Below, piece after piece: positions 1,763 through 35,979 of a stretch of DNA of 64,000 nucleotides (position 1 is the first letter of the stretch; each line of letters starts with the position of its first letter). Under the pieces are notes generated by a model that searched no databases, was not told the origin of the DNA, and saw only the letters and a program-made list of their open reading frames with translations. Location of the stretch: contig NZ_FOOA01000015.1 of assembly GCF_900113065.1 (NCBI RefSeq), positions 1-64,000 of the forward strand. The letters are read 5' to 3'. A program made the translations under genes and the position numbers. Source of the DNA: Aureimonas phyllosphaerae (GTDB lineage: Bacteria; Pseudomonadota; Alphaproteobacteria; Rhizobiales; Rhizobiaceae).

Positions 1763-1780
1763 CATGACGGGTTCTCACTG

Positions 1781-2809
<1,029 letters not shown>

Positions 2810-2910
2810 GCCGGAAGCGGCGCGACATCGCGCCGCCTGCCGTCGGAACATCCTGAGGGGTGCCGCGCCATCTGATCGGCCGCCCTCGTTGTCGCGACCC
2901 CTTCATCGAA

Positions 2911-9592: not shown

Positions 9593-9805
9593 TGGCGCAT
9601 GCTGCCTGCCTCATCCAAATGGACAATGCCTGCTGCGCCGATCGACCCGTCAGGCGGTGACGGATTCACCGAAAGACGTGCCCTTCTCCGTCTGCAGTCG
9701 TGCTCAACTCGATGGGACGGCCGCGCGGCTCCCGTGCCGACCCGAACCTTGGAACCGGCAGGGGGCCGGGTCCCTGGATGCTCTCGCGACAAGGGGTTCA
9801 ATCGC

Positions 9806-19241: not shown

Positions 19242-21386
19242 TCACCCTGCGGCACGCGCGAGCGGTGCCGGTTCCGCGTCGGCAAGGTCCTGGTGAAGAG
19301 GGTTCTGATAGCTGGGCAGGATCCTTGCGACAAACCCGATGACGCTGTGCGTGTCGCCGGTGTGGGCGAGTTTCTCCAACCCTTCGAACGCCTGGCGCAG
19401 CTCCTGCAGCGGAACGGGATGCGGCACGGCGCCGAACACGCCCGGCACGGGTGAGGCGACACGCTCCTCGTCGGCGTCGAACAGTTCCTCGAAGAGCTTC
19501 TCGCCCGGACGGCAGCCGACGAAATCGATCTTGATGTCTTCGCCCGGGCGGTAGCCGGCGAGCTTGATCATGCGCCGGGCCATGTCGATGATCTTGATGG
19601 GCTCGCCCATGTCGAGGACGAAGATTTCGCCTAGTCCGAGGCGTTTCTCGAGACCGTAGGCGGAAGCCTGAAGCGTCAGTTCCACCGCTTCGCGAATGGT
19701 CATGAAGAAGCGCTTCATGTCGGGATGGGTGACCGTCAGCGGGCCGCCACGCGCGAGTTGACGCTCGAAGAGCGGAATCAGCGACCCGCTGGAGCCCAGG
19801 ACGTTGCCGAAGCGCACGGTCATGAAGCGCGTACGCTCGTCGCTTCTCTCGCCGGCAAGGTCCAACGCCTGGCAGTAGAGTTCGGCCAGTCGCTTGGTCG
19901 CGCCCATGACGCTAGTGGCATTGACCACCTTGTCGGTCGAGATCTGGACCATGGCGCGTGCGCCGCAGGCCCGCGTGGCTTCCGCAACGTTCATCGAGCC
20001 GATGACGTTGGTGAGGATCCCCTCGCAAGGGTTCATCTCGACCATCGGGACATGCTTGAGGGCTGCCGCATGGAACACGAGATCGGGCTTGTGCCGCGCG
20101 AAGATCTCGTTGAGACGGCCGGCATCGCGGACGTTGCAGAGATAGGCTTTCCGCGGCGTGGACCCGTGCTTTTCCGATAGTTCGAGATCGATGGCATAGA
20201 GATTGAACTCGCAGCTCTCGATCAGCACGATCTCGGCCGGCCCCAGCCCGGCCACCTGAAGCGTCAGTTCCCGGCCGATGGACCCGCCCGCTCCCGTCAC
20301 CACCACGCGGCAACCATGGATCAGGCGATGCAGCGCGTCCCGATCGAGCGTGGTCTGCGAACGCTCCAAGAGATCGGTCAGCTCGATGGGACGCAGTTCG
20401 AGGCGGTTCCCGGCATTCGGGTTGCGGAGTTCGAGTGCCGGGGCGGGCCGCGAGATGGCGATGCCCAGACGATCGGCGCGGTCGATCAGCGCCTTCATTT
20501 CCGGATCGGTGAAGCTCGAGATCGTTTCGGTGAAGATCAGGTGGCGCGGCTTCAGTCCTCGGGCCTCGAGATCGCCCATCGCTTCGTCGAAGTCTGCGAT
20601 AGTGCCGAGGATCGGAACGCCGCGCAGGAGGTTTCCCGCCGTTCCCGTCGCGCGATCGAGGATGCCGACAGGCCAATGGCGTGCCGTGCCGTCGCGTTGC
20701 AGAGCGCGAAGATAGAGGTCGGCAATGTCGCCCGCCCCGACGAGGAGCACGGGCACGATATCGCGACCGCTCTTGGTGGCGACGCCGGTCCCGGGTTCGA
20801 ACCGACGGATCTCCGCGATCTTGAAGCGCATGCGTGCGCCCACGAGCAGGAACGTCAGAAGGAGAGCCTGCATGACGACGACCGAGCGCGGCACTGCGTC
20901 GAACCGGGTCGTCAGGAACAGGCATATGACGAAGCCGAGCGAGGCAATCGCGACAGCCCTGACGATGTCGAGAAGGTCGGCAACGGAGGCATAACGCCAG
21001 TTGCGACGGTAAAGGCAGGTCATCGGGAAGATCAGTGCGCATGTCGCCACGAAGAGCGGCAGGGCATAGGACAGGGCCCGAAAGCTGTCCGGGCTCGTCG
21101 CTTGGCCCTCGAGCCCGAGACGAACGGCCGAAGCGAGCAAGAACGCGACCGCTGCCAGAGCCAGGTCGCCGGCATAGAGTCCGAGATTGCTGCGCGTCGC
21201 CTTCAGGCGCTTTGCCGTTCTCTGGCGCAGGTGATGGTAGAGCTCGTTCCGGCTGACGAAGCTGGGCCAGGGCGACGATGCCGGGCCGTTCAGGAGATGC
21301 CGCGCGATGGAAGCCGCGTACAGGGGGATGGCATGAAGGCCGAGGGCGCCGCCGCCCGGCCGCTGCAGTTCGATGGGAGACGCCAT
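19242..21386 (-). CDS. CapD/FlaA1/WbpM-like membrane-bound nucleotide-sugar 4,6-dehydratase
   Basis: 714-residue inner-membrane enzyme. About four membrane spans (roughly 75-190) precede a CoA-binding-like Rossmann domain (VPVLLVGAGDIADLYLRAL), then the catalytic SDR domain opening VVVTGAGGSIGRELTLQ. The active-site region reads QISTDKVVNATSVMGATKR. As in WbpM and PglF, methionine replaces the usual tyrosine of YxxxK. Members convert UDP-GlcNAc to the 4-keto-6-deoxy sugar that feeds 4-amination. The start at 21386 (MASPIELQ) is preferred because AAGGGG lies 6 nt upstream; the frame is open to 21458. It leads the CapD-PL10-PL1 operon. Confidence 0.92.
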   Translation of the reverse strand: MASPIELQRPGGGALGLHAIPLYAASIARHLLNGPASSPWPSFVSRNELYHHLRQRTAKRLKATRSNLGLYAGDLALAAVAFLLASAVRLGLEGQATSPDSFRALSYALPLFVATCALIFPMTCLYRRNWRYASVADLLDIVRAVAIASLGFVICLFLTTRFDAVPRSVVVMQALLLTFLLVGARMRFKIAEIRRFEPGTGVATKSGRDIVPVLLVGAGDIADLYLRALQRDGTARHWPVGILDRATGTAGNLLRGVPILGTIADFDEAMGDLEARGLKPRHLIFTETISSFTDPEMKALIDRADRLGIAISRPAPALELRNPNAGNRLELRPIELTDLLERSQTTLDRDALHRLIHGCRVVVTGAGGSIGRELTLQVAGLGPAEIVLIESCEFNLYAIDLELSEKHGSTPRKAYLCNVRDAGRLNEIFARHKPDLVFHAAALKHVPMVEMNPCEGILTNVIGSMNVAEATRACGARAMVQISTDKVVNATSVMGATKRLAELYCQALDLAGERSDERTRFMTVRFGNVLGSSGSLIPLFERQLARGGPLTVTHPDMKRFFMTIREAVELTLQASAYGLEKRLGLGEIFVLDMGEPIKIIDMARRMIKLAGYRPGEDIKIDFVGCRPGEKLFEELFDADEERVASPVPGVFGAVPHPVPLQELRQAFEGLEKLAHTGDTHSVIGFVARILPSYQNPLHQDLADAEPAPLARAAG

Positions 21387-21602: not shown

Positions 21603-22451
21603 TTACTCGAAAGACGTACCTCGTCCGGCACGGCCCAGCCATCCAGACAGGTCGGCCTGAATGAGATTGCCCAACCGGGCGACGTCCGGTTCATAATAGT
21701 CCACGAGCCTCGCGCGCAGCGAGGACGACAGGGCCGGATACGCGACCTCGCCGATCAGACGCTTCCGCGCCGCGACGAAAAGGGGATGGCGACGAAAAGG
21801 CCGCACGAGCGGCTTGATCGGACCGAGCGCACGGCGCAGACCTCGCCCGACCATCGGTTCGGTGCGATCCTTCACCTTCTTCACGTCGACGGAACGCGGA
21901 TCCGCTTCGAGAAGACCGAGATGCGCGCGGACCTTCGCGAGCTGTCGACCCGGATCGGCCAGCATGTCCTCGTAGAAGAGAACCAGAAGCTGATCCTGCG
22001 GATAGAGGTCGAGATAGGCGGTCAGCTGATCGTGGTAGAGGCCGCCGTTGAGAAAGCGGTTGCCCCGTCCCGTCCGCGTATCGAGTTCCGCCTCGATGTT
22101 CCCGCCGGCCTCGCCGCGCCGATACAGCATGCAGTAGTCGGAATAGGCGCGCTCGACCGGGTTCCGGAGTTGAACGACCAGCCGGGCATGCGGCAGAAGG
22201 GCCTGGACGCGCGCCGGCGCGAGCGGATTGTCGAGGTAGGAGTTCGACTTCTCGCCGACGATCTGGTCCGCCCTGCATCCCTCGAATTGCCGGAAGTACC
22301 AGTCGTCCCCCCGCTCGTGGTAGCGACTGAAGTAGTGCAGTTCGGGCTCCGGCATGAACACGTGCGGATCGGCCTGAAGAGCTTTCTGCAACCAGGTCGT
22401 CGCGCTCTTGGCCGCGCCGATGATCAGGAAGTCGATGTCTTGCGCGCGCAT
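21603..22451 (-). CDS. PAPS-dependent sulfotransferase (first of two)
   Basis: 282-residue sulfotransferase of the heparan-sulfate/NodH-like type. The 5'-phosphosulfate-binding loop is GAAKSATTWL at residues 12-21, and the 3'-phosphate-binding motif is RNPVERAYSDY at 96-106. It transfers sulfate from PAPS, presumably to a sugar hydroxyl of the polymer or its lipid-linked unit. It lies 54 nt after a glycosyltransferase and downstream of cysD-cysNC on the same strand, so PAPS synthesis and use appear co-transcribed. Acceptor unknown. Confidence 0.9.
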   Translation of the reverse strand: MRAQDIDFLIIGAAKSATTWLQKALQADPHVFMPEPELHYFSRYHERGDDWYFRQFEGCRADQIVGEKSNSYLDNPLAPARVQALLPHARLVVQLRNPVERAYSDYCMLYRRGEAGGNIEAELDTRTGRGNRFLNGGLYHDQLTAYLDLYPQDQLLVLFYEDMLADPGRQLAKVRAHLGLLEADPRSVDVKKVKDRTEPMVGRGLRRALGPIKPLVRPFRRHPLFVAARKRLIGEVAYPALSSSLRARLVDYYEPDVARLGNLIQADLSGWLGRAGRGTSFE

Positions 22452-22505
22452 GCCTGGTGCACTCCCTGGTTTCGAATGGCTGGCGGCGGTCGCGCCACGG
22501 TGCTG

Positions 22506-23732
22506 CTAAGCGAAGGTTTCCGTGACGCCGGTCAGCCTGGCGGAACGTGCAGGCCGGCGAAGCGCGCGGGCATAGACAGCCATGATCTGTTCCACATGGC
22601 GCACCGAACCATAGGACTGATGGGCCTCGGCCTCGGCTGCATCGGCGATGCGTTTCGAGAGGTTCGGGTCCGACAGCAGTCGGGCCGTGGGATAGATGAA
22701 CGCATCCGCACTCTCGGGGTGGACGAGGAAACCGGTTCGTCCGTCGCAGATGGCCTCCGGATTGCCGCCATGGTCGGTCGCCACCACCGGCGTGCGAAGA
22801 AACATGGCTTCCACCAACGTGCGCCCGAGCGGCTCGCCGAAAGCGGGAACAAGCAGGATGTCGGTGGCGGCCAGAAAGGTCTCCATGGGGCTTCGAAAGC
22901 CCATGAGGCGCACGACATGCTGGAGGCCGAGAGCCTCGATACGGGCGCGAACCGCCGCATCGAGATCAGCGCCGGCGGGATCGGGCGCGCCGAACATGCA
23001 TCCCACGATGGGGATGGCGGGATGTCGCTGGCGGAATTGCGCGACGATCTCGACGAAAAGCAGGGGCCGCTTGCGCTCGATCAGGCTTCCCACATAGCTG
23101 AGCACTCTCGTTCCGGCAGGCAGGCCGAGTTCGCCGAGCAGCAAATCCTTGGCGTCCTTTCGGTCCGGCGATCGGAGGGGTGGATCGAACGGGCTGTTGA
23201 TCACGCTGAGCCGATCGCGGAGCGGCAGGAGGGGCCGCTTCGGGCGCGAGAAATGCGAAACGGTGACGACCTCGTTCGCGATCAACGGCGCGAGGCGGTT
23301 GACGCCCCGTGCGGCGGGATCGCCCCGGTGGTGCCACACCAGTCGCGCGCCGGCGAGGCGCGCTGCAAGACCCCAGTTTGCATGGATCCGCCCGTCGTTC
23401 GTATGGACGATATGGAAGCGCCCTTCGCGGATGAAACGGCGCAGGAAGGGCAAGGTCTGCCCCAGAAAACTCGCAAGGCGCGGCTGCTCGCCGTTCCGAG
23501 GGGACAGCGTCGCCTCCAGGGGACAGCCGACGAAGGCCTGGCCCTCGCGGCGCAGGAAGGCCGCAAGCGGCCCGTCCGTGCGTTGCAGCACGACAACGGG
23601 CTCCACCTGAGAGCGATCGAAGCCCTGGATCAGCTTCAGCGCGGAGATGTGGCTTCCTCCCACGTCGTCTCCAACGAAGGGAAAGCAGACCCGAAGCGGG
23701 CCGGCCGCGTCGAGACGCCTGCATTCCGGCAT
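22506..23732 (-). CDS. GT4-like glycosyltransferase
   Basis: 408-residue GT-B glycosyltransferase. The N-terminal acceptor domain starts after about 13 residues with LRVCFPFVGDDVGGSHISAL. The donor domain has RVLSYVGSLIERKRPLLFVE and the E-x7-E motif in EPLGRTLVEAM. Its ATG overlaps the cysNC stop by one base (TGATG), which suggests coupled translation. It is followed by the sulfotransferase, so it may add the sugar that becomes sulfated; that link is inference from order only. Confidence 0.88.
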   Translation of the reverse strand: MPECRRLDAAGPLRVCFPFVGDDVGGSHISALKLIQGFDRSQVEPVVVLQRTDGPLAAFLRREGQAFVGCPLEATLSPRNGEQPRLASFLGQTLPFLRRFIREGRFHIVHTNDGRIHANWGLAARLAGARLVWHHRGDPAARGVNRLAPLIANEVVTVSHFSRPKRPLLPLRDRLSVINSPFDPPLRSPDRKDAKDLLLGELGLPAGTRVLSYVGSLIERKRPLLFVEIVAQFRQRHPAIPIVGCMFGAPDPAGADLDAAVRARIEALGLQHVVRLMGFRSPMETFLAATDILLVPAFGEPLGRTLVEAMFLRTPVVATDHGGNPEAICDGRTGFLVHPESADAFIYPTARLLSDPNLSKRIADAAEAEAHQSYGSVRHVEQIMAVYARALRRPARSARLTGVTETFA

Positions 23733-25663
23733 CAGTGCGCGCCTTGTGTGATGTAGCCGGCCCGCATGAGATGCGACACCACGACTTCGGCGGCATCGGC
23801 CGCGCTGAGGTCCGGCGTCATCCGGATATCGGGCTCTTCCGGCGGCTCGTAGGGACTGTCGATGCCGGTGAAGTTCTCGATCAGACCCTGGCGGGCGCGC
23901 TTGTAGAGGCCCTTCGGATCCCGGCTTTCGGCGACTTCGATGGGCGTGTCCACGAAAATCTCGATGAACTCGCCCTCCTGCAGCATCTCGCGCGCCATCC
24001 GCCGTTCGGCTCGGAAGGGCGAAATGAAGGAAACCAGCGTGACGATGCCGGCGTCGGCGAAGAGGCGGGCCGCTTCCGCGACGCGTCGGATGTTCTCCAC
24101 CCGGTCGGCTTCCGTGAAACCGAGGTCGCGGTTCAACCCGTGGCGGATGTTGTCGCCGTCCAGAATGTAGGTGTGGATGCCCAGCGAATGGAGCCGCTTC
24201 TCCACGAGGTTGGCGATGGTCGATTTGCCGGCGCCGGAAAGTCCCGTGAACCAGAGGACGGCCGGCTTCTGGCCCTTGAGCGCGGCACGCGACGACTTGT
24301 CGACGTCGAGCGCCTGCCAGTGGATGTTGTGCGCGCGTCGAAGACCGAACTCGATCATCCCCGCACCGACGGTGAGGTTCGTCATCCGGTCGATGACGAT
24401 GAAGGCGCCGGTCTCCTTGATGCTCGAGAACGGATCGAAGGCGATCGGCTCGTGCGTCGACAGGTTGACGAACCCGACCTCGTTGAGTTCGAGCGTCCTG
24501 GCGGCGAGCTTCTGAAGGGTGTTGACGTCGACCTTGTGCTTGATGTCGGTGACGCTGGCCGTGAGCGTCCGGGTGCCGATCTTCACGAGATAGGGCCGGC
24601 CGGCGATCAGGGGATCGGCATGCATCCAGATCAGGTGCGCGGCGAACTGGTCCGAGACCTGGGGGCGAGCGACCGCCGCGGCGATGACGTCGCCGCGCGA
24701 GGCGTCGATCTCGTCCTCAAGGGTCAGGGTGACGGCCGCGCCCGCACCCGCGGCCTCGAGATCGCCGTCATAGGTGACGATCCGTTTCACACGGCTGGTG
24801 ATGCCCGACCCGGCGACGACGATCCGCTCGCCCGTCCGCACCGATCCGGCCGCGATCGTGCCGGCAAAGCCGCGGAAGTTGAGATGCGGGCGGTTGACCC
24901 ATTGGACGGGCATCCGAAAGGGAGCGCTGGGGTCGGCCTCCTCGACCTCGATGGTTTCGAGGTGTTCGATCAGCGACGGCCCCTCGTACCAGGGCGTCCG
25001 CTCGCTGCGGGTCAGCATGTTGTCGCCGAAGCGAGCCGCCAACGGGATGGCCTGCAGCGAGCGGAACCCGAAACTCTCGGCGAAGGCCTGGTACTCCGCC
25101 ACGATGGCCTCGAAGACATCCTTCGAATAGTCGACGAGATCGATCTTGTTCACGGCCAGGACGACGTGCCGGATGCCGAGCAGCGAGACGATGAAGGAAT
25201 GGCGGCGCGTCTGCGTCAGGATGCCGTGGCGCGCGTCGACGAGGAGCACGGCCAGATCGGCGTTGGAAGCGCCGGTCGCCATGTTGCGGGTGTACTGTTC
25301 ATGTCCCGGCGTGTCGGCGACGATGAACTTGCGCGCATCCGTGGCGAAGAAGCGATAGGCGACGTCGATCGTGATGCCCTGCTCGCGCTCGGCGGCGAGA
25401 CCGTCGACGAGAAGGGCGAAGTCGAGCCCATCCTCCGTGGCGCCCCGACGGCGGTTGGAGTCGCGGCCGAGGGCGGCGAGCTGGTCCTCGGTCAGGAGCT
25501 TCGTGTCGTAGAGGAGCCGGCCGATGAGGGTCGACTTGCCGTCGTCGACGCTGCCGCAGGTGAGGAACCGCAGAAGGCTCTTGCGCTCTGTACCGGGCAG
25601 GAGGCCGGGAAGGCCGGAGGCCGCTTCAGGACCGGCGTGGGACGTGTCGAGAACGGCGCTCAT
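23732..25663 (-). CDS. cysN: Bifunctional sulfate adenylyltransferase subunit 1 / APS kinase (CysN-CysC fusion, NodQ-like)
   Basis: 643-residue fusion. The CysN GTPase half has G1 GSVDDGKS (37-44), DTPGHEQY (117-124) and NKID (172-175). It drives ATP-sulfurylase activity with CysD to form APS. The CysC half has P-loop GLSGAGKS (474-481) and [15 protein letters not shown] and phosphorylates APS to PAPS. This two-in-one arrangement is that of rhizobial NodQ and housekeeping CysNC. It follows cysD with TGATG overlap and precedes a glycosyltransferase and a sulfotransferase. A role in making PAPS for polymer sulfation is strongly suggested by context, but a general role in sulfur assimilation cannot be excluded. 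Confidence 0.96.
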
Positions 25664-26631
25664 CAGAAATAGCCCTCCTGCTTCTTCTTCTCCATGGATG
25701 CGGCCTCGTCATGATCGATGAGGCGCCCCGAACGCTCCGATGTCCGGGCCAGGAGAATCTCACGGACGATGTCGGGAAGCGTTGCGGCCTCGCTTTCGCA
25801 CGCCGCCGTCAGCGGGTAGCAGCCGAGCGTGCGGAAGCGCACGCTGCGCATCTCGGGCACCTCGCCCGCGCGCAGGGGCAGGCGGTGGTCGTCGACCATG
25901 ATCCACTGCCCGTCGCGCTCCACCACGGGGCGCGGCGCCGCGAAGTAGAGAGGGACGATCGGGATGTCCTCGGCCAGGATGTATTCCCACACGTCGAGCT
26001 CGGTCCAGTTGGACAGGGGGAAGACGCGGATCGACTCGCCCGACTTGATGCGGGTGTTGAAGAGGTTCCAGAGTTCCGGCCGCTGATCCTTCGGGTTCCA
26101 GCCATGATTGGCCGAGCGGAACGAGAACATGCGCTCCTTGGCCCTCGATTTCTCCTCGTCGCGACGCGCACCGCCAAACGCGGCATCGAAGCGATGAGCC
26201 GACAGCGCCGCCTTCAGCGCCTCGGTCTTCATCACCTGCGTGTAGAACGAGGATCCGTGCGTGAACGGATTGATCCCCTCGGCCAGTCCCGCCTCGTTGC
26301 GATGGACCACAAGGTCGAGACCGAGACGGGCCACCGTCTCGTCGCGAAACCGGATCATCTCGGCGAACTTCCACGTCGTGTCGATGTGAAGCAGCGGGAA
26401 CGGCGGCAGGGCGGGAAAAAACGCCTTCATCGCCAGATGCAGCATCACGGCCGAGTCCTTGCCGATCGAATACATCAGCACCGGATTCTGGAATTCGGCG
26501 GCGACCTCACGGAAGATGAAGATCGCCTCGGCCTCGAGACGCCGGAGATGTTCCGGCAGCGAACCGCCTCCTGCTTCTCGTGCGGACGCGGGCCTGGTTT
26601 CCGGGGCAAGGGGAACAGCGATGGACATCAT
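25663..26631 (-). CDS. cysD: Sulfate adenylyltransferase subunit 2 (CysD)
   Basis: Catalytic subunit of ATP sulfurylase, 321-322 residues, making APS from ATP and sulfate with CysN. PP-loop motif [43 protein letters not shown] and [13 protein letters not shown] are all present and intact. Two adjacent ATG codons (26631 and 26628) are possible: the first overlaps the flippase stop as ATGA, the second as TGATG with better spacing to an AAAGG. The stop overlaps the cysNC ATG by one base. The gene is embedded in the polysaccharide operon after the flippase, not with cysH or cysG. Confidence 0.95.
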
Positions 26632-28097
26632 GCGCCTTTCGAAACGAGGAGAGCGGTGTCGCGGGGCAGATCGAGCGGATCCGGGCGCGCCGTCTGATGG
26701 TGCGCGAGCGCGCGGTGGAGCGTGAAGCTGAGACCGCCCGCCCAGCAGATCCCGAGCGCGATATGGGCGATGTTGCCGCCCATAGGCCCGATCGTCGGAA
26801 TGAGGAGCATGGCGACGGCGAAGAACACGATCGTTCCGACCACGACGGTGCGCAGGACGTCGTGCTGGCGGCCCATGGCGAGGAGCCCGACGCGCATGGC
26901 CGAGCCGCACAGCACGAAGGCGACAGCCACCATCTGCACGACGACGAGCGAGGAAGCGCCGAGAAATTCCGGGCCGGCCGTCCAGAGGAGGAGCGGATGG
27001 ATCAGGACCGCGATCGCGACGATGCCGACGAGACTGGCGACGAAGAGCAGCGCCTCGATCTGCAGGATCAAGCGCTTGAATTCGCCGACGCGTCCCTGAG
27101 CCCAGAGCCGTGTCACGTCCGGATAGAGCACGGCCTGAACCTGTGCCCCCACCTGCTGCCCGACGCGTCCGATCCGCTTGGCGATGTGGTAAAGGCCGGC
27201 GGCCGCGGGATCGGTCAGCGCGCCGACGAGAAGCGTGTCGAACTCTTGCGCGCTCATGCGCAGCGTCAGCGACAGGTTGGCCGACCAGGCGAAACCCCAG
27301 ATGCCGGGGAAGCGCTGCGTGACGCCCCGCACGCTCGCCGTCAGCAGCCGGTGGATGCCCTGTCGGCGCAGGGTATGAAGTGCCAATCCCAGCATGATCA
27401 GCGAGCCGAGCGCCTGCGTCCCGGCCCAGACCGCCACGAAATAGGGCAGCCCGGCCATCATCAGGCTGCCGACAAGACATAGGCCGACGCGCGCGATCGA
27501 GTTGACCAGTTGCCCGTAGGCCACGAGGCGGAACTGGCCGGCCATGCGCTGGACGGCGGTCGGCATTCCCGTGAGCTGGAACAGGAGGACGCTCGAGTAC
27601 GCGATCACCAGATGCGTCGTCTCGGCCGGCCAGGAAAAGAGATACGCCCCCATGAGGGCTCCAAGGACTGCGACAGCGAAGGCAAGGACCGCACTTGCGA
27701 GGTCGAGAAGGAAGCCGAACTTCAGCAGCATGCGCAGGTCGCCGCGCTGCGCGGGATGCTGGAGGTCGGCGCCGTACTTGATGATCGGCTGCCATGTCTG
27801 GAAACTGACGACGCGCTCCACCACGCGGACGAATGTGTAGATCATCGCAAGGAGCCCGTAATCGACAGGGCCCAGCGCGCGCGCGGAGAGTGCGAAGGCG
27901 GCAAGGCCGAGCAGCGAGCCGATGAAGTTTCCGGTGAGGAGATGGCCGATATTGGCGAGGCGCGTGCGATGGTCGCCCGTCTGCCGGAAGCTGCGCAGAG
28001 CCTTTCGCACACGACCGGGAAGGAGGTTCGAATGGGCCAAGATCGCCTCTTGCGATCGCCCGGACAGCCTATCCCGCCGCATTCGTCGCAGCCTCAT
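26628..28097 (-). CDS. Wzx-like polysaccharide flippase (MOP superfamily)
   Basis: Up to 489 residues with about twelve hydrophobic segments beginning at [30 protein letters not shown], the usual start of polysaccharide-transporter family proteins. It would flip the lipid-linked repeat unit to the periplasm. The first 45 or so residues before this are basic and atypical, so the true start may be a later codon such as the GTG in the RVRKALRSF region. It is the first gene of the flippase-cysD-cysNC-GT-sulfotransferase operon and is divergent from the acyltransferase. Confidence 0.87.
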
Positions 28098-28333
28098 AGT
28101 GCGCGGGCGGGAAAGCGCGGCTAGTTCGCCCTTCGGTCTCCGACCTCCGACGACCGCCCCCTTCGGACCAAGCGGGCAACGATGATCTACGTCGTTCGCC
28201 TTACCCCCTTACTCCTGTCGCTCCGCAGTCCTGGGGCACGATAGACCTTTGCCGGGGGCGACGCGTCGCCCGTGGACGATAAGCTGCCGGGCCAACCGTC
28301 CGGCTCTCGTCCGCACGGGGCGGCAGGGACTGT

Positions 28334-30370
28334 ATGGGGCAAGACCCGGTTCATCGATCGAGCGCACGGGAGCGCTCGTACTATCGTGCCGACATCGACG
28401 GCCTGCGAGCGGTCGCCGTCATCGCGGTCCTCCTGTTTCACGCTGAGTTGCCCGGTTTTGCAGGCGGCTACGTCGGCGTCGACGTCTTCTTCGTCATCTC
28501 CGGCTTCCTGATCACATCGATCATCTGCGAAGACTTGGACCGCGGTCGCTTCACATTCGCCGACTTCTACGCCCGTCGCGTCCGGCGCATCTTCCCGGCC
28601 CTCTTCGCCACGGTTCTCGTCACCTGCATCGTCGCCGGATGCTTTTTTCTTCCGCCGGACTTCCGCTCGCTCGGCGCTTCGATCGCGGCGACGGCGGGCT
28701 TCGCCTCCAATATCCTGTTCTGGGCTCAAGCGGACTATTTTGATGCGCCGGCGGAGCTCAAACCCCTCCTTCACACCTGGTCGCTGTCGATCGAGGAACA
28801 GTTCTACCTCGGCTTTCCCTATCTTCTGGTCCTCCTCTGGTGGATGGATCCGCCAAATCGACGGCGCGTGCTGGCGGGCCTGACCGCCGCCTCGTTCGCC
28901 ATAGGCGTCATCGCCACGCACAAGGATCCCCAGGCAGCCTTCTACCTCCTGCCGCCGCGGGCCTGGGAACTGCTTCTCGGCGCTCTTCTGGCTCTGTCAC
29001 CCGGCCCCGCGCTTCCGCCCGCGCTCGCTCGACGCGCGGGTTGGCTCGGTCTTGCATCGATCCTCCTGGCCGTTGCGATCTACGATGCTCAAACGCCCTT
29101 CCCGGGCTTTGCCGCCCTATTGCCGACCCTCGGCGCGGCGCTGGTGATCGGTGCGGGGACATCGGGCCACGTCGGGGCGTCGAAGCTTCTGGGAAGCCGC
29201 CCTCTGGTCGCGGTCGGCCGGCTCTCGTTCTCGCTCTACCTCTGGCATTGGCCGGTCCTGTCGCTCCTGCGCTACGCGCTGGCTCGCGAGCTCGATGGCT
29301 TCGAGACCGCAGCAGCGCTTGCGACCTCCGTTCTTTTGGCCATCGTCTCCTGGCGCTTCGTCGAGGAACCGTTCCGGCGCCCGCGAACGCAATCCAGGGC
29401 GGCGGTCCTGCGCAGGGCGGCTGCGGTCACGGCCGGCATCTTCCTGACGGGGATCGTCCTTCAGGCAACCGGCGGGTTGCCGCAGCGCCTGCCCGATCGG
29501 CTTCTCGCCTATAGCCCGCTCTTACCGCCCGAAGCCGAAAGCCGCGTGTCCTGTGCAAGCTGGTCCGCAGCGCGCACCAATCTGCCGGGTATCTGCCTCG
29601 TGGGGGATCTGTCGGCGCCCGACCTGAGCTTCGCCGTGATCGGCGACAGCCACGCGGAAGCGCTGATCCCGGCCTTCGAACTGGCCGCGACGCACCACCG
29701 ACAGAAGGGGCTCGTCTTCGTCAAGCACGCCTGCCGACCGATGCTCGGCGTCGCGCGTGTCGTGGACGGCAAGCGGAATGCATCGTGCTCGACCTTCGTC
29801 GCCAAGGCGATCGACGAGATCCGGGCGCAGGCCTCGATCGAGGAGGTCGTCTTCGCCGCACGCTGGACGCGCCAGGCCCTGGGGACAGGCTACCAGCAGC
29901 CTGTCTCCTTCTATACGGACGGACAGTCGCCCGAAGTGTCGATCGAAGAGAACAAGCGTTCGCTCATCCGCGGCCTCGACCGGGCCTTCGACGCGCTGTC
30001 CGATCGGCGCATCACGGTGATCGGCGCGGTCCCCGAGAACGAGTTCCTGCCGCCGATGGCGCTGGCGATGGCGAATCTCTTCCGCCGCTCGCCGCCCCGC
30101 ACGACCGCAGAAGCCTTCCATCGCCGGAACGCGGTGGTGGAAGACGTCTTCGCGCAGCTCGCCAAATGGCATCGGTTCCAGTTCATTGCACCGGCGCGTC
30201 ATCTCTGCGACGGGGCGACCTGCGCGGCCGAGATCGGTGGCCGCTCGCTCTATCGCGACGACGACCATCTCAGCGCGTTCGGCGCCGAGCAACTCGCGAA
30301 CGTGATCGACGACATGTTCGAGGAGCCGCCGACCCCGGTCCCGCCCGTGAAGGCTCGAGACGGGAACTAG
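28334..30370 (+). CDS. Acyltransferase 3 with C-terminal SGNH domain (OafA-like)
   Basis: 678-residue membrane O-acyltransferase. The N-terminal acyltransferase-3 domain opens RADIDGLRAVAVIAVLLFH, then GGYVGVDVFFVISGFLI, FYARRVRRIFPA, and HTWSLSIEEQFYLGFPYL, with about ten spans. A periplasmic SGNH hydrolase-like domain follows, with block I as VIGDSHAEALIPAF and the catalytic pair in DDHLSAFGA. Such two-domain proteins acetylate O-antigen or EPS sugars. It stands alone on the plus strand inside the locus and shares its last bases with the convergent sulfotransferase gene (stops overlap in CTAG at 30367-30370). Confidence 0.92.
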   Translation: MGQDPVHRSSARERSYYRADIDGLRAVAVIAVLLFHAELPGFAGGYVGVDVFFVISGFLITSIICEDLDRGRFTFADFYARRVRRIFPALFATVLVTCIVAGCFFLPPDFRSLGASIAATAGFASNILFWAQADYFDAPAELKPLLHTWSLSIEEQFYLGFPYLLVLLWWMDPPNRRRVLAGLTAASFAIGVIATHKDPQAAFYLLPPRAWELLLGALLALSPGPALPPALARRAGWLGLASILLAVAIYDAQTPFPGFAALLPTLGAALVIGAGTSGHVGASKLLGSRPLVAVGRLSFSLYLWHWPVLSLLRYALARELDGFETAAALATSVLLAIVSWRFVEEPFRRPRTQSRAAVLRRAAAVTAGIFLTGIVLQATGGLPQRLPDRLLAYSPLLPPEAESRVSCASWSAARTNLPGICLVGDLSAPDLSFAVIGDSHAEALIPAFELAATHHRQKGLVFVKHACRPMLGVARVVDGKRNASCSTFVAKAIDEIRAQASIEEVVFAARWTRQALGTGYQQPVSFYTDGQSPEVSIEENKRSLIRGLDRAFDALSDRRITVIGAVPENEFLPPMALAMANLFRRSPPRTTAEAFHRRNAVVEDVFAQLAKWHRFQFIAPARHLCDGATCAAEIGGRSLYRDDDHLSAFGAEQLANVIDDMFEEPPTPVPPVKARDGN

Positions 30371-31212
30371 CCGAGTTGGAGGCCGGTCTTCGACACCAGA
30401 GCCTTGGCGGCCGGCGTCAGGTGGCGCTCGCAGATGCCGAGGATCCTGACCGCCTGCGCCTCGCTGAGATAGTCTGCAAAGCCGCCCGCCACGCCGCGCC
30501 GCATCCGCAGGCTTTCGGTATCGCCGCGATCATAGTCGTGCGCCGGGAGCCCCTGCTCGATCTCGCGCTCGCGCATCGCCTCGAAGCGCGACGCCTCGAC
30601 CGCACGCCGCATCGGTTCCGGTCGATGCGGGAAACCGAGGAAATCCACCACGCTCGAACTGGTGGCCTCCGTCTCGGCCGTCAGCGCTTCGTAGCTGATG
30701 ACGATGTTGCGGTGATGAGGAAGCCCCCTTCCCCAGGCATTGAGGTAGCGAACGAGGGCAGGAGCGCCCTGCGCCTCGTCCACGATGAACTCGTCGATCC
30801 CGCCGACGAAGCGGTGCTTGTGACGCGTGGCATGGAAGTAGGCCGAGACGAGAACATCGCGGGGGTCGCGCACCATGAAGATGATCGGGCGATTGAGAAA
30901 GAGCGATCGCCGGTAGAGATGATGGGTGACGAGGATCAGCGGAACATCGCTGCGCCGATGTCCGTATCGGAACGCGGGGATGCCGCGCACCGGATCGAGA
31001 TCGTAGTTCGGAACGACCCCGAACATCTCCCGCAGATCGACCGCCTCCCCTTCGCGCGCGAGGGACGCGAAGTAGTGCGAGAGGATGAAGCGGAACCACG
31101 TCCGTCCCGACTTCGGGTAGGATACGAGGAACGTGTCGGCCCCGACGGCCGCCCAGGTCATCCTGACCCGGCGGTCGATCTTCCGGAACGCGCGCTGATG
31201 CAGCATGGTCAT
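30367..31212 (-). CDS. PAPS-dependent sulfotransferase (second)
   Basis: 281-residue sulfotransferase of the sulfotransfer_1 type, different from the one at 21603. The PSB loop is YPKSGRTW at 32-39, and the 3'-phosphate motif is RDPRDVLVSAY at 115-125. The C-terminal RRGVAGGFADYLSEAQ matches the usual K/RxGxxGxW-like end of the family, with F at the last position. Its ATG overlaps the stop of the upstream glycosyltransferase (ATGA). Having two sequence-unrelated sulfotransferases suggests two sulfation sites; that is inference. Confidence 0.9.
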   Translation of the reverse strand: MTMLHQRAFRKIDRRVRMTWAAVGADTFLVSYPKSGRTWFRFILSHYFASLAREGEAVDLREMFGVVPNYDLDPVRGIPAFRYGHRRSDVPLILVTHHLYRRSLFLNRPIIFMVRDPRDVLVSAYFHATRHKHRFVGGIDEFIVDEAQGAPALVRYLNAWGRGLPHHRNIVISYEALTAETEATSSSVVDFLGFPHRPEPMRRAVEASRFEAMREREIEQGLPAHDYDRGDTESLRMRRGVAGGFADYLSEAQAVRILGICERHLTPAAKALVSKTGLQLG

Positions 31213-32444
31213 GGGCCGTACCTCGAATGGGAGTGGGACGTGAGCGCCGCATCGACGACCTCGTCCCAGCGGTCCACGACGTGAGCGGTGGTGAACCGGC
31301 GGCTACTTTGGCGCGCCGCTTCGGCAAGACGCTGGCGCAGGCTCTCGTCCGAGAGCAGGCGCCGCAGCGCCCCGGCCATGGCCGCCACGTTCTCGGGGTC
31401 GACGAGAAGGCCGTTCTGGCCATCGTCGATCATCTCCCGCGGGCCCCAGCGGCAATCGAAGGAAACCACGGGAAGGCCTGCGGCCATGGCTTCCAGAAGA
31501 ACGATGCCCCAGCCCTCGAAGCGCGAGGACAGGACGAAGGCGTCGGCCGTATCGACCCAGACGCCCGGCACATCGGTGACGCCGGGCATGTCGACCCGGC
31601 CATCGAGCCCGAGGCTGGCGCGCTCGGCTTCGAGAAGGCCACGGTCTGCGCCCTCGCCCCAGATCACGAGGCGCCAGTCCGGAACTTCCGGAGCGATCTC
31701 GGCGAAGGCGCGCAGGAGGAGGTCGAACCCCTTCTGCGGAACCAGCCGGCCAACGGCGGTCAGCGTCCGGCCATCGGACCGACGCCGTCCCGCTGCCGGC
31801 AGATCGACCGGATTGGGGATCACCCATCCGCGCCGGCGCATCGGCGCGGGGAAGAACTCGAGCGCACCCTTCGTCATCGTCACGAGGCCGAAGGCGCGCG
31901 GGTAGAGGCGCGAGCGGAGGGTGTTCCAGATCGGTCCGACGGTCTGGGCCGCCGGGTTGTTGCGCTCCGACACGACGACCTCCACGCCGAGGCGGAACGC
32001 AGCCATCAACGTGAGGACGTTCGTGCGGACGAGAAAGCTGACGACGACGTCCGGTCCCACCTCGCGCAGCGCCCGGTGGAGACGCCACACGCGACGACCC
32101 GCGGTGCCGATCGCCGAGACCGCGCCACGGCGGCCGGGCGGCAGCCCCAGACGCCGGACCTCGATGCCGGGGTGGAGGGGGTAGTAGGGAACCGCGCCCG
32201 GCTCTTCGAGCGTCAGGATCGTCACCGATCGGCCGCGAGCGATCCATTCGTTGGCAAGCACGCTGACCACATGCTCGGTCCCGCCCGCCCCCAATCCGGG
32301 CAGGACGATGCAGATCCTCGCCGCCGCGCCCGCAGCGAGCGGAAGGCCTGCGACCGGTTTGAACGTCGTCGGGTTGCGTTCGTGTCCCAAGCGGTGCCCC
32401 GGATTTCGATCCCTCGCGTCCTTCGAGTATGCGGGGCAAGGCAA
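31209..32444 (-). CDS. GT4-like glycosyltransferase
   Basis: Up to 411 residues. The conserved part starts with ICIVLPGLGAGGTEHVVSVLA at about residue 44, so the first 40 residues are probably not translated and a start nearer 32310-32370 is likely. Motifs: SFLVRTNVLTL, VVVSERNNPAAQ, TAVGRLVPQKGFDLLLRAFA, and the E-x7-E motif in EGWGIVLLEAMAAGLPVVSFD. This resembles amylovoran AmsD and other GalNAc-type GT4 enzymes. It is the first gene of a two-gene operon with the second sulfotransferase. Confidence 0.86.
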   Translation of the reverse strand: MPCPAYSKDARDRNPGHRLGHERNPTTFKPVAGLPLAAGAAARICIVLPGLGAGGTEHVVSVLANEWIARGRSVTILTLEEPGAVPYYPLHPGIEVRRLGLPPGRRGAVSAIGTAGRRVWRLHRALREVGPDVVVSFLVRTNVLTLMAAFRLGVEVVVSERNNPAAQTVGPIWNTLRSRLYPRAFGLVTMTKGALEFFPAPMRRRGWVIPNPVDLPAAGRRRSDGRTLTAVGRLVPQKGFDLLLRAFAEIAPEVPDWRLVIWGEGADRGLLEAERASLGLDGRVDMPGVTDVPGVWVDTADAFVLSSRFEGWGIVLLEAMAAGLPVVSFDCRWGPREMIDDGQNGLLVDPENVAAMAGALRRLLSDESLRQRLAEAARQSSRRFTTAHVVDRWDEVVDAALTSHSHSRYGP

Positions 32445-32587: not shown

Positions 32588-33520
32588 ATGAGTTCGATCC
32601 GCACCGTCTTCGTAGGAGCAGTCGAAGGATCGCTCGTCGCGCTCGAGGCCCTGATCGCCGCCGGACGGGCTCCCGTTCTGGTGGTCACGCTTCCGCCGGA
32701 ATCGGCCCATCGCCATTCGGATTACGTCGATCTCGCTCGTCCCGCCCGCAAAACCGGGGCGGCCGTGCACTTCACGACCAACATCAATGCGCCGGAAACG
32801 GTCGAAGCGATCCGCGCGGCGGCACCGGACCTCACGATGGTGATCGGCTGGTCGCAGATCTGCCGCGAGCCCTTCCGCTCGGTGGCACGGCTGGGAACCC
32901 TCGGCTACCACCCCTCGCCCCTGCCGCGTTTCCGCGGACGGGCGGTGATCCCCTGGACGATCCTGGCGGAGGAGACGACCTCGGGCTCGAGCGTCTTCTG
33001 GCTGGACGAAGGGGTCGACAGCGGTCCGATCATCGTCCAGCGTCTGTTCCCCGTCGCGCACGACGAAACCGCCCGATCGCTCTACGACAAGCACAAGCAG
33101 GCGCTCGCCGAGATCGCTGTGGATGCGCTGGACAGGATCGCGAGGGGCGAGGCCGCCGGCACCGCCCAGGACGAACGGCTTGCGAGCTACTGCGCCAAAC
33201 GGACCGAAGCGGACGGTCTCATCGACTGGCGCGAGCCATCCGAGGCGATCCTGCGTCTCGTGCGGGCGGTGGGCGACCCCTATCCGGGAGCCTTCACCTT
33301 CGATGCCGGCGACCGGATCGTCGTCGGCTCGGCGTGCGCGCTGGCACCACACGGGCGCCATATCGGCCTGACCGGTCAGGTTCAGGGCCACACCGAACGC
33401 GGGTTCTCGGTTCTGTGCGGCGATGGCATCACGATCGAAGTCACCACCTGGCGCGGGTCGCCGGACGGGCGGCGCCCGAAGGTGCACGCCCGGCTGGGCC
33501 CGTGCCGCAGGCCCGCATGA
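32588..33520 (+). CDS. Sugar N-formyltransferase (ArnA N-terminal/Fmt-like)
   Basis: 310-residue enzyme of the formyltransferase fold using N10-formyl-tetrahydrofolate. The folate-site motif GYHPSPLPRFRGRAVIPW and the catalytic Asp in WLDEGVDSGPI are present. A C-terminal subdomain follows (IDWREPSEAILRLVRAVGDPYPGAF), as in ArnA, VioF-type sugar formyltransferases and Fmt. ATG 32588 follows GGGGATC and starts the Rossmann-like part. Isolation in a polysaccharide locus argues for a nucleotide-sugar substrate rather than Met-tRNA. The gene converges on the epimerase with only 4 bp between stops. Confidence 0.85.
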   Translation: MSSIRTVFVGAVEGSLVALEALIAAGRAPVLVVTLPPESAHRHSDYVDLARPARKTGAAVHFTTNINAPETVEAIRAAAPDLTMVIGWSQICREPFRSVARLGTLGYHPSPLPRFRGRAVIPWTILAEETTSGSSVFWLDEGVDSGPIIVQRLFPVAHDETARSLYDKHKQALAEIAVDALDRIARGEAAGTAQDERLASYCAKRTEADGLIDWREPSEAILRLVRAVGDPYPGAFTFDAGDRIVVGSACALAPHGRHIGLTGQVQGHTERGFSVLCGDGITIEVTTWRGSPDGRRPKVHARLGPCRRPA

Positions 33521-33524
33521 GGCA

Positions 33525-34559
33525 TCAGGCGGGGACCGGTGCCGGTGTCGTCCGGGCCCAATGTTCTCGATACCACTCGACAAAGGCCGCAACCCCGTCC
33601 TCGACCTGCGTCTTCGGAGCGTAACCGGTCAACGCCTCCAGCAGGCGGTGGTCGGCAAAGGTGACGGCGGCATCGCCCGGCTGCATCGGCAGCATCCTGC
33701 GCACGGCCCGCTTGCCGAGGCAGCGCTCGATCGCAGACACGAAATCGATCAGTTCGACCGGCTTGCCGCCGGCGATATTGACGACCCGCCAGGGCGCGAC
33801 GGGTGACAGGGTGTCGGCGACGCCCTCCACCTGCACCGGTCGACCGATCGAGGGCGGGCAGTCGGCCAGCCGCGCGATCGCCTCGACGAGATCGCCGACA
33901 TAGGTGAAGTCGCGCCGCATGCGCCCCTCCCCGTAGACCTCGATCGGTCGACCGTCCTCGATCGCCTCGACGAAGCGGAAAAGCGCCATGTCCGGCCGTC
34001 CCCAGGGTCCATAGACCGTAAAGAACCGGAAGCAGGTCGTCGGGATCGAGAAGAGGTGCGCATAGGCATGCGACATCTCCTCCATCGCCTTCTTGGTCGC
34101 GGCATAGAAGGTCAACGGCAGGTCCGCCTTGTCGGACTCGGCGAACGGCAGCGCGGTGTTGGCGCCGTAGACCGAACTCGTCGACGCCAGCATCAGATGC
34201 CGCAGCTTGAGGCCGCGCGCGAGTTCCACGATGTTGAAGGAGCCGATGAGGTTGCTGTCCGCATAGGTCTGCGGGTGGTCGATCGAATAGCGCACCCCGG
34301 CCTGCGCGGCGAGGTGCACCACCATCTCGGGATCGGCGAGATCTGCGGCATGGCGCAGCGCATCCATGTCCTCGACGCGTCCGGTCAGGGCGCGAAAACC
34401 GGGGCGGCGCGCCAGGATCGCATGCCGGGCCGCCTTCAGCCTGACATCGTAGTAAGGCGTCATCGCGTCGAAGCCGACGACCTCGTGACCGTCGTCGAGA
34501 AGCCGGTTCGCCAGATGGAATCCGACGAAGCCCGCGGTCCCGGTGATCAGGATCCTCAT
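33525..34559 (-). CDS. UDP-glucuronate 4-epimerase-like SDR (LpsL type)
   Basis: 344-residue extended SDR. It begins [24 protein letters not shown] and continues [20 protein letters not shown], a pattern of UDP-glucuronate 4-epimerases. Catalytic parts [15 protein letters not shown] and [15 protein letters not shown] are intact. The enzyme would make UDP-galacturonate from the UDP-glucuronate supplied by the Ugd encoded 73 nt upstream on the same strand. GalA in the polymer would fit the two pectate-lyase-like enzymes in the locus. The start at 34559 is clear; upstream in-frame sequence is unrelated. Confidence 0.9.
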
Positions 34560-34632: not shown

Positions 34633-35979
34633 TCATTCCGCGGCCACCGGATACGAGAGGGGAAGCGTCGCGAGCCCATCGCCGAGGCAGGTGTAGCGAA
34701 GGCCCCGCTTCTCGATCTCCTCGCTGCGATAGATGTTGCGCAGATCCACGAGGACGTTGCCCGTCATGCCCGCCGCCAGTCGGTCGAGGTCGAGCGCGCG
34801 GAACTGGTCCCATTCCGTCACGATGACGAGCGCATCGGCTCCATGCGCGCAGACATAGGCATCCTCCGCATAGGCGACATGGGGATCGAGGAGCGGGCGG
34901 GCCTGCTCCATTCCCTGCGGATCATAGGCGGTGACTCGCGCGCCCGCATCGATCAACCCCTGGATGATGGAGATGGCGGGCGCCTCGCGCATGTCGTCGG
35001 TGTTCGGCTTGAAGGTGAGGCCGAGCACGGCGATCGTGCGCCCCCGCACCCGCCCGCCGCAGGCCGCGACCACCTTGCGCGCCATCGCCCGCTTGCGCTG
35101 GTCGTTGACGGCCACGGTCGCCTCGACGAGCCGGAGCGGCGCGTTGCTGTCCTGGGCGGTCTTGACGAGAGCGAGCGTGTCCTTGGGAAAGCAGGATCCC
35201 CCGTAGCCCGGCCCTGCGTTCAGGAATTTCGGCCCGATGCGCTTGTCGAGCCCGATCCCGCGCGAGACCTCCTGAACGTTGGCCCCGACATTCTCGCAGA
35301 GATCGGCGATCTCGTTGATGAAGGTGATCTTGAGCGCGAGAAAGGCGTTCGCGGCGTATTTGACGAGTTCGGACGTGCGCCGGCTGGTGAAGAGAATCGG
35401 GGCGGCGTTGAGGTAGAGCGGCCGGTAGACCTCGGTCATGACCTCCACCGCTCGCGGATCGGCATGGCCGACGACGATCCGGTCGGGTCGCTTGAAGTCC
35501 TCGATCGCGGCGCCTTCCCGCAGGAACTCCGGATTGGAGACGACGGCTACGTCTGCGTTCGGATTGACCATGCGGATGATGTAGTCGACCTCGTCGCCGG
35601 TTCCGACCGGAACGGTCGACTTCGTTGCGACGACCGTGAAGCCCCGAACGTGCCGCGATATGTCCCGGGCCACGTCGAAGACATGGCTGAGGTCGGCATG
35701 TCCGTCGCCGCGCCGGGACGGCGTTCCGACCGCGATGAAGACGACGTCGGCTTCCGAGACGGGACCGGCGAGATCGGTCGAGAACGAAAGGCGGCCCGCC
35801 TGCACGTTACTGGCGACGATCTCGGCGAGCCCAGGCTCGTAGATGGGCATGCGACCGGCGCGCAACGCCTCGATCTTGTGCTCCGCCTTGTCGACGCAGG
35901 TCACCACATGACCGAAGTCGGCAAAGCACGCCCCACTGACGAGGCCGACGTAACCTGAGCCTATGATCGTGATCCGCAT
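34633..35979 (-). CDS. ugd: UDP-glucose 6-dehydrogenase
   Basis: 448-residue enzyme oxidising UDP-glucose to UDP-glucuronate with two NAD+. It has the NAD-binding [11 protein letters not shown] at 7-17, the catalytic cysteine C263 in [13 protein letters not shown], and [16 protein letters not shown] in the C-terminal domain. The size and sequence fit the RkpK/Ugd group. It is first in a two-gene operon with the 4-epimerase and closes the EPS locus at its right end. Upstream there are 418 bp without a gene, where its promoter must lie. Confidence 0.96.

What the first reader, a model, noticed from the sequence alone, without database searches (positions are those of the whole stretch)
21603..31212. 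Dedicated PAPS synthesis and two sulfotransferases inside an exopolysaccharide locus
cysD and a cysN-cysC fusion are embedded, with overlapping start and stop codons, between a flippase and a glycosyltransferase/sulfotransferase pair, and a second, dissimilar sulfotransferase lies at 30367-31212. Intact PAPS-loop motifs are seen in both. A sulfate importer operon (1-2809) flanks the locus. Sulfate activation is known from NodPQ/LpsS-type systems in rhizobia; a self-contained sulfated EPS cluster with import, activation, transfer and lyases is not one I recognise as described.
Basis: partly seen in the sequence, partly recalled or inferred. Interest (0 to 1): 0.75.

Follow-up and report, generated by a model that had tools for sequence, protein, structure and literature searches.

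The report
Sulfated exopolysaccharide gene locus in Aureimonas
This stretch of DNA very probably lets a bacterium of the genus Aureimonas build a polysaccharide decorated with sulfate, using its own sulfate-activating enzymes; it belongs to a kind of gene cluster already described in marine bacteria and in a legume symbiont.

Summary
Around them is a Wzx/Wzy polysaccharide locus.

The genome has a separate cysD-cysN-cysH-cysI set without APS kinase, with CysH of the APS-reductase type. In the genus, full-length CysNC occurs in 4 of 21 genomes, exactly the 4 with STR1, always side by side.

Two claims fail. The importer (1-2809) is a copy of the housekeeping sulfate transporter, which the genus members tested without the locus also have. 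And such clusters are in print: Cobetia and Vibrio capsule clusters with PAPS genes and sulfotransferases, and the S. meliloti nodP2Q2-SMb21248 cluster, already proposed to make a sulfated polysaccharide, which holds homologs of 20 of the 25 locus genes.

New here: the kinship of these loci across Rhizobiales, Rhodobacterales and Sphingomonadales, and a CysNC tree that rejects one single origin of their PAPS genes. New member of a known kind. That the polymer carries sulfate is inferred, not shown.

The parts
21603..22451 (-). STR1, PAPS-dependent sulfotransferase, nearest characterised solved kin heparan-sulfate 3-OST/NDST
   Evidence: PF13469 9.1e-19, PF00685 1.2e-14; PDB kin; motifs
22506..23732 (-). 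GT-B glycosyltransferase (gtC)
   Evidence: PF00534 2.9e-27
23732..25663 (-). CysN-CysC fusion (ATP sulfurylase GTPase subunit + APS kinase)
   Evidence: PRK05506 1021.8 bits; intact motifs
25663..26631 (-). CysD, ATP sulfurylase small subunit
   Evidence: PRK12563 511.5 bits
26628..28010 (-). Wzx-type flippase
   Evidence: PF01943 6.5e-14
28334..30370 (+). AT3-SGNH acyltransferase (O-acylation of the polymer is inferred)
   Evidence: PF01757 4.4e-30, PF19040 1.1e-43
30367..31212 (-). STR2, PAPS-dependent sulfotransferase, nearest solved kin of the SULT class
   Evidence: PF00685 1.5e-24; PDB kin
31209..32390 (-). GT-B glycosyltransferase (gtD)
   Evidence: PF00534 1.1e-40
32588..33520 (+). 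formyltransferase, probably of an amino sugar (ArnA-like)
   Evidence: PF00551 3.6e-23; NCBIfam matches all below cut-off
33525..34559 (-). NDP-sugar epimerase/dehydratase
   Evidence: PF01370 1.6e-51
34633..35979 (-). nucleotide-sugar dehydrogenase, best match UDP-glucose 6-dehydrogenase
   Evidence: TIGR03026 over cut-off; TuaD 494.6 bits, below its cut-off of 700
19242..21386 (-). CapD-like nucleotide-sugar 4,6-dehydratase
   Evidence: PF02719 4.9e-106
17771..19225 (-). helical-toroid enzyme with a PL10-like stretch; reaction uncertain
   Evidence: PF09492 2.3e-17; model pLDDT 64 and fold search
16407..17774 (-). pectate-lyase-like polysaccharide lyase
   Evidence: PDB 9buj 9.3e-22, VexL 1.1e-8
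15043..16419 (+). Wzy-type polymerase
   Evidence: PF04932 8.7e-14
12522..14771 (-). Wzz/Wzc-type co-polymerase
   Evidence: PF02706, PF13807, both just below gathering score
11729..12370 (+). calcineurin-like phosphoesterase, role unknown
   Evidence: PF00149 4.5e-15
7179..8342 (+). glycosyltransferase gtA
   Evidence: PF00534 6.6e-25
8339..9592 (+). glycosyltransferase gtB
   Evidence: PF13692 1.1e-27
9599..10801 (+). ATP-grasp protein
   Evidence: PF21360, PF02655
10785..11738 (+). NAD-dependent epimerase (epi1)
   Evidence: PF01370 1.5e-39
5622..6938 (-). Wza-type outer-membrane export protein
   Evidence: PF02563 1.1e-13
4966..5625 (-). undecaprenyl-phosphate sugar-1-phosphate transferase
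   Evidence: PF02397 4.9e-48
4289..4969 (-). PIG-L deacetylase
   Evidence: PF02585 5.3e-26
2972..4258 (-). DegT sugar aminotransferase
   Evidence: PF01041 2.6e-94
1..2842 (+). cysTWA, copy of the housekeeping sulfate importer: neighbour, not part of the cluster; repeat at the contig end, cysT lacking its first 7 codons here
   Evidence: CysW TIGR02140 403.4 bits
38330..38995 (+). Crp/Fnr-family regulator beside the locus (role not tested); also next to the locus in G161
   Evidence: PF00027, PF13545; synteny

Best explanation
The region from about 2.9 to 36 kb is a Wzx/Wzy-dependent exopolysaccharide locus whose repeat unit is sulfated. UDP-sugars (probably UDP-glucuronate from 34633-35979; an amino, probably N-formylated, deoxy sugar from the CapD, DegT, formyltransferase and PIG-L enzymes) are built onto undecaprenyl phosphate. 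CysD with CysNC turns sulfate, ATP and GTP into APS and then PAPS. STR1 and STR2 each transfer sulfate to a different position, most likely on the lipid-linked repeat in the cytoplasm before Wzx flips it. Wzy, Wzc and Wza then polymerise and export it. PAP left over is removed by a CysQ encoded elsewhere (contig C17). Shown: gene content, intact motifs, operon structure, separate assimilation route, co-occurrence. Inferred: that the acceptor is this polymer, the sugars, the order of steps and the sulfated positions.
For: Operon overlaps and intact motifs. Separate cysD-cysN (no cysC), cysH, cysI on contig C32, with CysH over the cut-off of the APS-reductase model TIGR02055 (242.6 vs 235.3) and below the PAPS-reductase equivalog TIGR02057 (148.7 vs 254.2). 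Genus: full-length CysNC in 4 of 21 genomes, STR1 in the same 4 of 21, STR2 in 3 of 21; 21 of 21 have a CysN-only match; chance of the same 4, kinship ignored, 1.7e-4. 59 of 62 STR1 loci found by sequence carry three or more of the locus's other polysaccharide genes (three of the 62 are the genus mates again). S. meliloti cluster with cysD-cysNC-cysQ, STR1, STR2 and a third sulfotransferase. Published sulfated capsules with the same gene logic.
Against: No chemistry exists for this organism's polymer. STR2's closest solved relatives act on small molecules. A third sulfotransferase (C43) and a second APS kinase (C17) exist in the genome, so the locus is not the only conceivable user or source of PAPS. 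CysH also passes PRK02090, a model named for PAPS reductase (257.6 vs 154). CysNC or CysN relatives are common in the family (140 of 151 genomes match at E<=1e-50) and, of 60 CysNC neighbourhoods that I chose by hand from that list, only one (L154) held a kin of these sulfotransferases, so CysNC alone does not predict sulfation. 53 of 62 STR1 loci have no cysDNC within the held DNA, although in S. meliloti it lies 21 kb from STR1, beyond that range.
Confidence: 0.8

Rival explanations
1. The sulfotransferases sulfate something other than the exopolysaccharide, for instance lipopolysaccharide, a glycolipid or a small molecule, and merely travel with the locus.
For: STR2 is closest among solved structures to bile-salt/alcohol sulfotransferases; LpsS sulfates lipopolysaccharide in S. 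meliloti (named in PMC5498481).
Against: STR2 overlaps and STR1 adjoins a glycosyltransferase gene, and STR1 is found with three or more polysaccharide genes of this locus in 59 of 62 loci.
Confidence: 0.12
2. cysD-cysNC here are a spare copy of cysteine assimilation that happens to sit in the locus.
For: CysDNC makes APS as well as PAPS and could feed cysteine synthesis (established knowledge; no call).
Against: A cysDN-cysHI set is on C32, a CysN-only match is present in 21 of 21 genus members, CysH is APS-type and should not need CysC, and the full CysNC is found only with STR1.
Confidence: 0.04
3. PAPS made here is mainly a signal that controls matrix production, as proposed for Vibrio vulnificus.
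For: [quoted passage not shown] vulnificus (PMC6113621, passages); a Crp-family gene lies beside the locus.
Against: Two sulfotransferases with intact PAPS sites in the same locus give PAPS an enzymatic use; no PAPS sensor was identified or looked for here.
Confidence: 0.04

Closest known systems
Sinorhizobium meliloti pSymB nodP2Q2-SMb21248 cluster (Zou et al. 2017, PMC5498481)
   Same: Within 33.5 kb, homologs of 20 of the 25 locus genes from degT to ugd: cysD, cysNC, ATP-grasp, epi1, gtA (30%), gtB, capD, formyltransferase, pectate-lyase-like, wzc (in two pieces), wzy, gtC, STR1, wzx, wza, PGT, PIG-L, DegT, STR2, gtD; also an RTX protein. The authors propose a sulfated polysaccharide, structure unknown.
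   Different: No match for the phosphoesterase, PL10-like protein, AT3-SGNH acyltransferase and epi2; only a 29% match for ugd. Gene order differs; cysD-cysNC lie at the edge and are followed by cysQ; there is a third sulfotransferase (STR3, probably SMb21237 by position); its CysNC is not in the window's clade.
Cobetia marina KMM 1449 sulfated capsule cluster (PMC11766843)
   Same: cysN/cysC fusion, cysD and sulfotransferase genes inside a polysaccharide cluster; structure of a sulfated polymer reported (title and passages).
   Different: ABC (kps) export instead of Wzx/Wzy; carries cysQ and a sulfate permease in the cluster.
Vibrio sp. KMM 8419 sulfated capsule cluster (PMC11641403)
   Same: Second copies of cysD, cysN, cysC with sulfotransferases in the cluster; authors call the pairing a hallmark of sulfated polysaccharide synthesis.
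   Different: ABC-dependent capsule; cysN and cysC named separately; marine gammaproteobacterium.
Synechan xss cluster of Synechocystis (PMC8205485)
   Same: Wzx/Wzy system with two sulfotransferases of distinct subfamilies; EPS found to contain sulfate.
   Different: The main text has no occurrence of PAPS, APS kinase or phosphosulfate; cyanobacterium.

Membership tests
Polysaccharide cluster with its own PAPS synthesis (Cobetia/Vibrio type) | cysD, cysN and cysC plus sulfotransferase genes inside a polysaccharide cluster | tested here: met
Polysaccharide cluster with its own PAPS synthesis (Cobetia/Vibrio type) | Polymer carries sulfate | not testable with these tools
   no chemistry available
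Polysaccharide cluster with its own PAPS synthesis (Cobetia/Vibrio type) | CysQ in the cluster (Cobetia) | tested here: not met
   no match to the C17 CysQ among the window ORFs at E 1e-10; C17 CysQ is TIGR01331 287.6 bits. The genome was not searched for further CysQ genes
Polysaccharide cluster with its own PAPS synthesis (Cobetia/Vibrio type) | Dedicated sulfate uptake gene in the cluster (Cobetia) | tested here: not met
   cysTWA is a copy of the housekeeping operon; cysW in 0 of 62 STR1 loci within the held DNA
S. meliloti nodP2Q2-SMb21248 locus family | Shared set of polysaccharide genes with STR1 and STR2 | tested here: met
   20 of 25 locus genes
S. meliloti nodP2Q2-SMb21248 locus family | Third sulfotransferase (STR3) | tested here: not met
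   no STR3 match in the window, present in G161 and S. meliloti
S. meliloti nodP2Q2-SMb21248 locus family | cAMP/Clr control | not tested
   only a Crp-family gene nearby; orthology to Clr not tested
Wzx/Wzy-dependent exopolysaccharide system | Wzx, Wzy, PCP, OPX and initiating sugar transferase | tested here: met
   the PCP matches are just below the gathering score
Nod-factor sulfation (nodPQ-nodH) | nodABC and nodH beside cysDNC | tested here: not met
   no such family among the window genes scanned with Pfam, 43 of 50 called genes, all of those around cysDNC included; an annotated nod locus with cysDN looks different
PF00685/PF13469 PAPS sulfotransferases (STR1, STR2) | Lysine loop and Arg/Ser motif of the PAPS site (roles recalled), family score over cut-off | tested here: met
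   STR1 matches PF00685 over profile positions 2-181 of 255

The most novel reading that the evidence does not exclude
One family of sulfated-exopolysaccharide loci runs through Rhizobiales, Rhodobacterales and Sphingomonadales. It captured PAPS-making cysD-cysNC more than once. On this view the S. meliloti 'nodulation' genes nodP2Q2 are, in origin, exopolysaccharide sulfation genes, and Aureimonas, with no nod genes seen in the locus, shows that role outside symbiosis.
Probability: 0.45. Interest if true: 0.5.

Novelty: new member of a known kind. Interest (0 to 1): 0.4.

Why it matters
Bacterial polysaccharide sulfotransferases with known acceptors are few (PMC11641403 says that relatively little is known of them). 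This locus gives a compact Wzx/Wzy version with one 3-OST-like and one SULT-like enzyme. It also gives a comparison for the S. meliloti nodP2Q2 cluster, whose product was 'so-far unknown' in 2017: the shared gene set predicts part of what that polymer should contain.

Tried and rejected
Importer as part of the cluster: rejected. In G161 the locus contig (C10) ends in 99 bases of the cysA 3' end region, an exact match to the end of the contig with sbp-cysTWA (C27), so the locus adjoins a cysA 3' end there too; the same 99 bases lie at the end of C9, so which contigs truly join is open. G154, G167 and G164 keep the same msbA-dapB-gpmA-sbp-cysTWA block followed by a 224-aa gene, not the locus. 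In G000 and G161 that gene sits at another contig end next to the cysA 3' end.

CysNC as one inherited part of this locus type: rejected by the tree. 12 rows labelled as sulfotransferase loci against 64 others need at least 6 changes, and one clade is rejected (p-AU 9e-23). 76 of 77 chosen rows entered; L163 was dropped as too short. The Aureimonas and three Mesorhizobium rows (7 of 12) form one supported clade (SH-aLRT 98). A fourth Mesorhizobium row (L028) lies near it in an unresolved fork, and the other four (L044, L049, L102, L154) fall in one supported set of 14 whose order is unresolved, so two separate origins are the safe count. The tree is a quick one without bootstrap.

Second lyase (17771-19225) as glucuronyl C5-epimerase: only a sub-threshold Pfam match (2.4e-4). 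The structure model is poor (pLDDT 64, 9 sequences) and matches GH76, unsaturated glucuronyl hydrolase, epimerases and lyases alike: left open.

Limits. The STR1 scan reaches close kin only (6 peptide patterns; 62 of 96 stretches confirmed), and three of the 62 (L025, L027, L072) are the genus mates G164, G161, G163 again. Family genomes were sampled: 151 of a larger group; neighbourhoods were fetched for 60 CysNC matches chosen by hand, some cut short by contig ends.

Papers. Search listings. Passages only: PMC8205485, PMC11641403, PMC11766843, PMC4053727, PMC7816849, PMC6200981, PMC7902896, PMC6113621, PMC12542648, PMC6192434. Abstract plus passages: PMC5498481. Townsend et al. 2006 (M. loti nodPQ-dependent sulfated polysaccharides) is not held; I know it from citing text and recall. 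'Aureimonas' with 'sulfotransferase' gave 0 papers in this library, which lacks most subscription journals.


Full report
Where the window lies. The window is the first 64 kb of a 112-kb contig (C33) of a 4.71-Mb genome, 99.98% complete. The genus is therefore Aureimonas by inference.

The observation. STR1 and STR2 belong to different branches of the sulfotransferase fold. STR1 aligns with heparan sulfate 3-O-sulfotransferases and keeps the PAPS-site Lys and Arg/Ser and the Glu-x-His stretch that carries the catalytic base (roles recalled); its very best match is a solved protein named only 'Sulfotransferase'. STR2 aligns over residues 13-255 of 281 with bile-salt/alcohol sulfotransferases, including the active-site His (role recalled).

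The surroundings. Around them lies a Wzx/Wzy system: initiating sugar transferase, four glycosyltransferases, polymerase, co-polymerase (matches just below the gathering score) and outer-membrane export protein. Sugar genes probably for a uronic acid and for an amino or N-formyl deoxy sugar, an AT3-SGNH acyltransferase and two polysaccharide-degrading-type enzymes are also there.

Is the PAPS dedicated? The genome has a second cysD-cysN on C32 together with cysH and cysI; this CysN has no CysC domain. CysH has the CC and CxxC pairs and passes the APS-reductase model while failing the PAPS-reductase equivalog; it also passes PRK02090, which is named for PAPS reductase. Cysteine synthesis therefore should not need CysC. 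In 21 genomes of the genus, full-length CysNC is in 4, STR1 in 4 and STR2 in 3, and the CysNC and STR1 sets are the same four, side by side. G163 lacks STR2. All 21 have a CysN-only match, whose neighbourhood I read only in G000. It does not correct for kinship among the four.

Not the only possible PAPS source. A second APS kinase sits on C17 as a fusion to a CysN part that has lost the GTPase P-loop, beside CysQ and a sugar transferase. Such partial matches occur in 12 of 21 genus members, including ones without STR1; I read 7 of the 12, and 6 of these 7 have the CysQ and sugar transferase neighbours. A third, weaker sulfotransferase is on C43. The only CysQ that I saw is the C17 one; I did not search the genome for others.

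The importer. Bases 1-2842 (cysTWA) are identical to the ends of contigs C35 and C53. C35 carries the complete operon with sbp and the native cysT start; the C53 copy lost the first 7 codons of cysT. Three of three genus members tested without STR1 (G154, G166, G167) have CysW at 88-96% identity. In G154 and G167, and in G164 where the locus is elsewhere, msbA-dapB-gpmA-sbp-cysTWA is followed by a 224-aa gene. In G000 and G161 that gene lies at another contig end that also bears the cysA 3' end, which is thus present on 4 and 3 contigs respectively, against 1 in G164. The simplest reading is that the polysaccharide island was inserted just behind the housekeeping importer. The adjacency is real but not evidence of a dedicated importer.

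Relatives. The 62 loci found with STR1 span Mesorhizobium, Aureimonas, Jiella, Sinorhizobium/Ensifer, Rhizobium, Stappia, Chelativorans, Rhodobacterales and Sphingomonas, among others. Within the held DNA (up to 10 kb each side), 59 of 62 have at least three other locus genes, 17 of 62 have STR2, 9 of 62 have cysD and cysNC together, 1 of 62 has a cysT-like match and 0 of 62 have cysW. Three of the nine with cysDNC have no STR2 in reach. The S. meliloti 2011 pSymB stretch 785-833 kb carries homologs of 20 of the 25 locus genes, plus cysQ, an RTX gene, a third sulfotransferase and a weak ugd match. Zou et al. 2017 described the nodP2-SMb21248 cluster with three sulfotransferases and proposed a sulfated polysaccharide; that this is the same stretch I infer from replicon, size and gene content. 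A 2025 paper repeats that it is a Clr-regulated polysaccharide cluster.

How the PAPS genes got there. On a tree of 76 CysNC proteins, the Aureimonas and three Mesorhizobium copies form one supported clade of 7. The S. meliloti copy groups with L154, also a sulfotransferase locus, and L160; these and the two Rhizobium copies (L044, L049) lie in a supported set of 14 rows whose inner order is unresolved. A copy from a true nod locus (L165) lies in another part. One clade for all 12 locus copies is rejected. So cysD-cysNC seem to have joined, or been replaced in, this locus type at least twice. I did not find this result in the passages read.

Counter-evidence. Of the 60 CysNC neighbourhoods chosen from the family search, one held a kin of these sulfotransferases, so CysNC by itself says little. 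53 of 62 STR1 loci lack cysDNC in the held DNA, so the enzymes may work with PAPS made elsewhere. No chemical data exist for this polymer.

Comparison with the known. Published clusters already combine cysDNC with sulfotransferases in a polysaccharide locus, Cobetia even with cysQ and a sulfate permease. The present locus differs in using Wzx/Wzy export, in lacking cysQ and a dedicated importer, and in its host. It is a new member of a known kind and, by homology, of the S. meliloti locus family.

Noticed in passing
L014:6537-9851 (G000:C17); L096-L100: Gene trio of sugar transferase, CysQ and an APS kinase fused to a CysN remnant, seen in 6 of 7 such loci read; the GTPase P-loop is gone in the 5 aligned (L099 not aligned). 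Partial matches in 12 of 21 genomes, including ones without STR1. Its sulfotransferase partner is unknown.
   Followed up: partly
window 2843 and L091 end, L171 end, L175, L176: Island junction 33 bases behind the cysA stop, at a palindrome that looks like the cysA terminator; the cysA 3' end is repeated on 4 contigs in G000 and 3 in G161 but on 1 in G164, as if an element had inserted there.
   Followed up: partly
L086:1-2842 (G000:C53): Exact further copy of cysTWA lacking sbp and the first 7 codons of cysT, next to a gene for a 914-aa protein.
   Followed up: partly
L091:4469-5407 (G161:C10:24469-25407); L102:18177-19115: A third sulfotransferase-like gene (STR3), between wzy and wzc in G161 and beside the pectate-lyase-like gene in the S. 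meliloti cluster, not found in the window.
   Followed up: partly
L101:5841-7432 (G162:C5): Stand-alone APS kinase beside a 230-aa protein whose N-terminal loop looks like a sulfotransferase's (motif recalled).
   Followed up: no
L015:853-6668 (G000:C43): 1282-aa glycosyltransferase/RgpF protein whose N-terminus looks like a sulfotransferase loop (motif recalled), two genes from a separate sulfotransferase.
   Followed up: no
window 40406-47923: Cellulose-synthase-like gene group (BcsA- and BcsB-like, GH8, TPR protein) beyond the exopolysaccharide locus.
   Followed up: no
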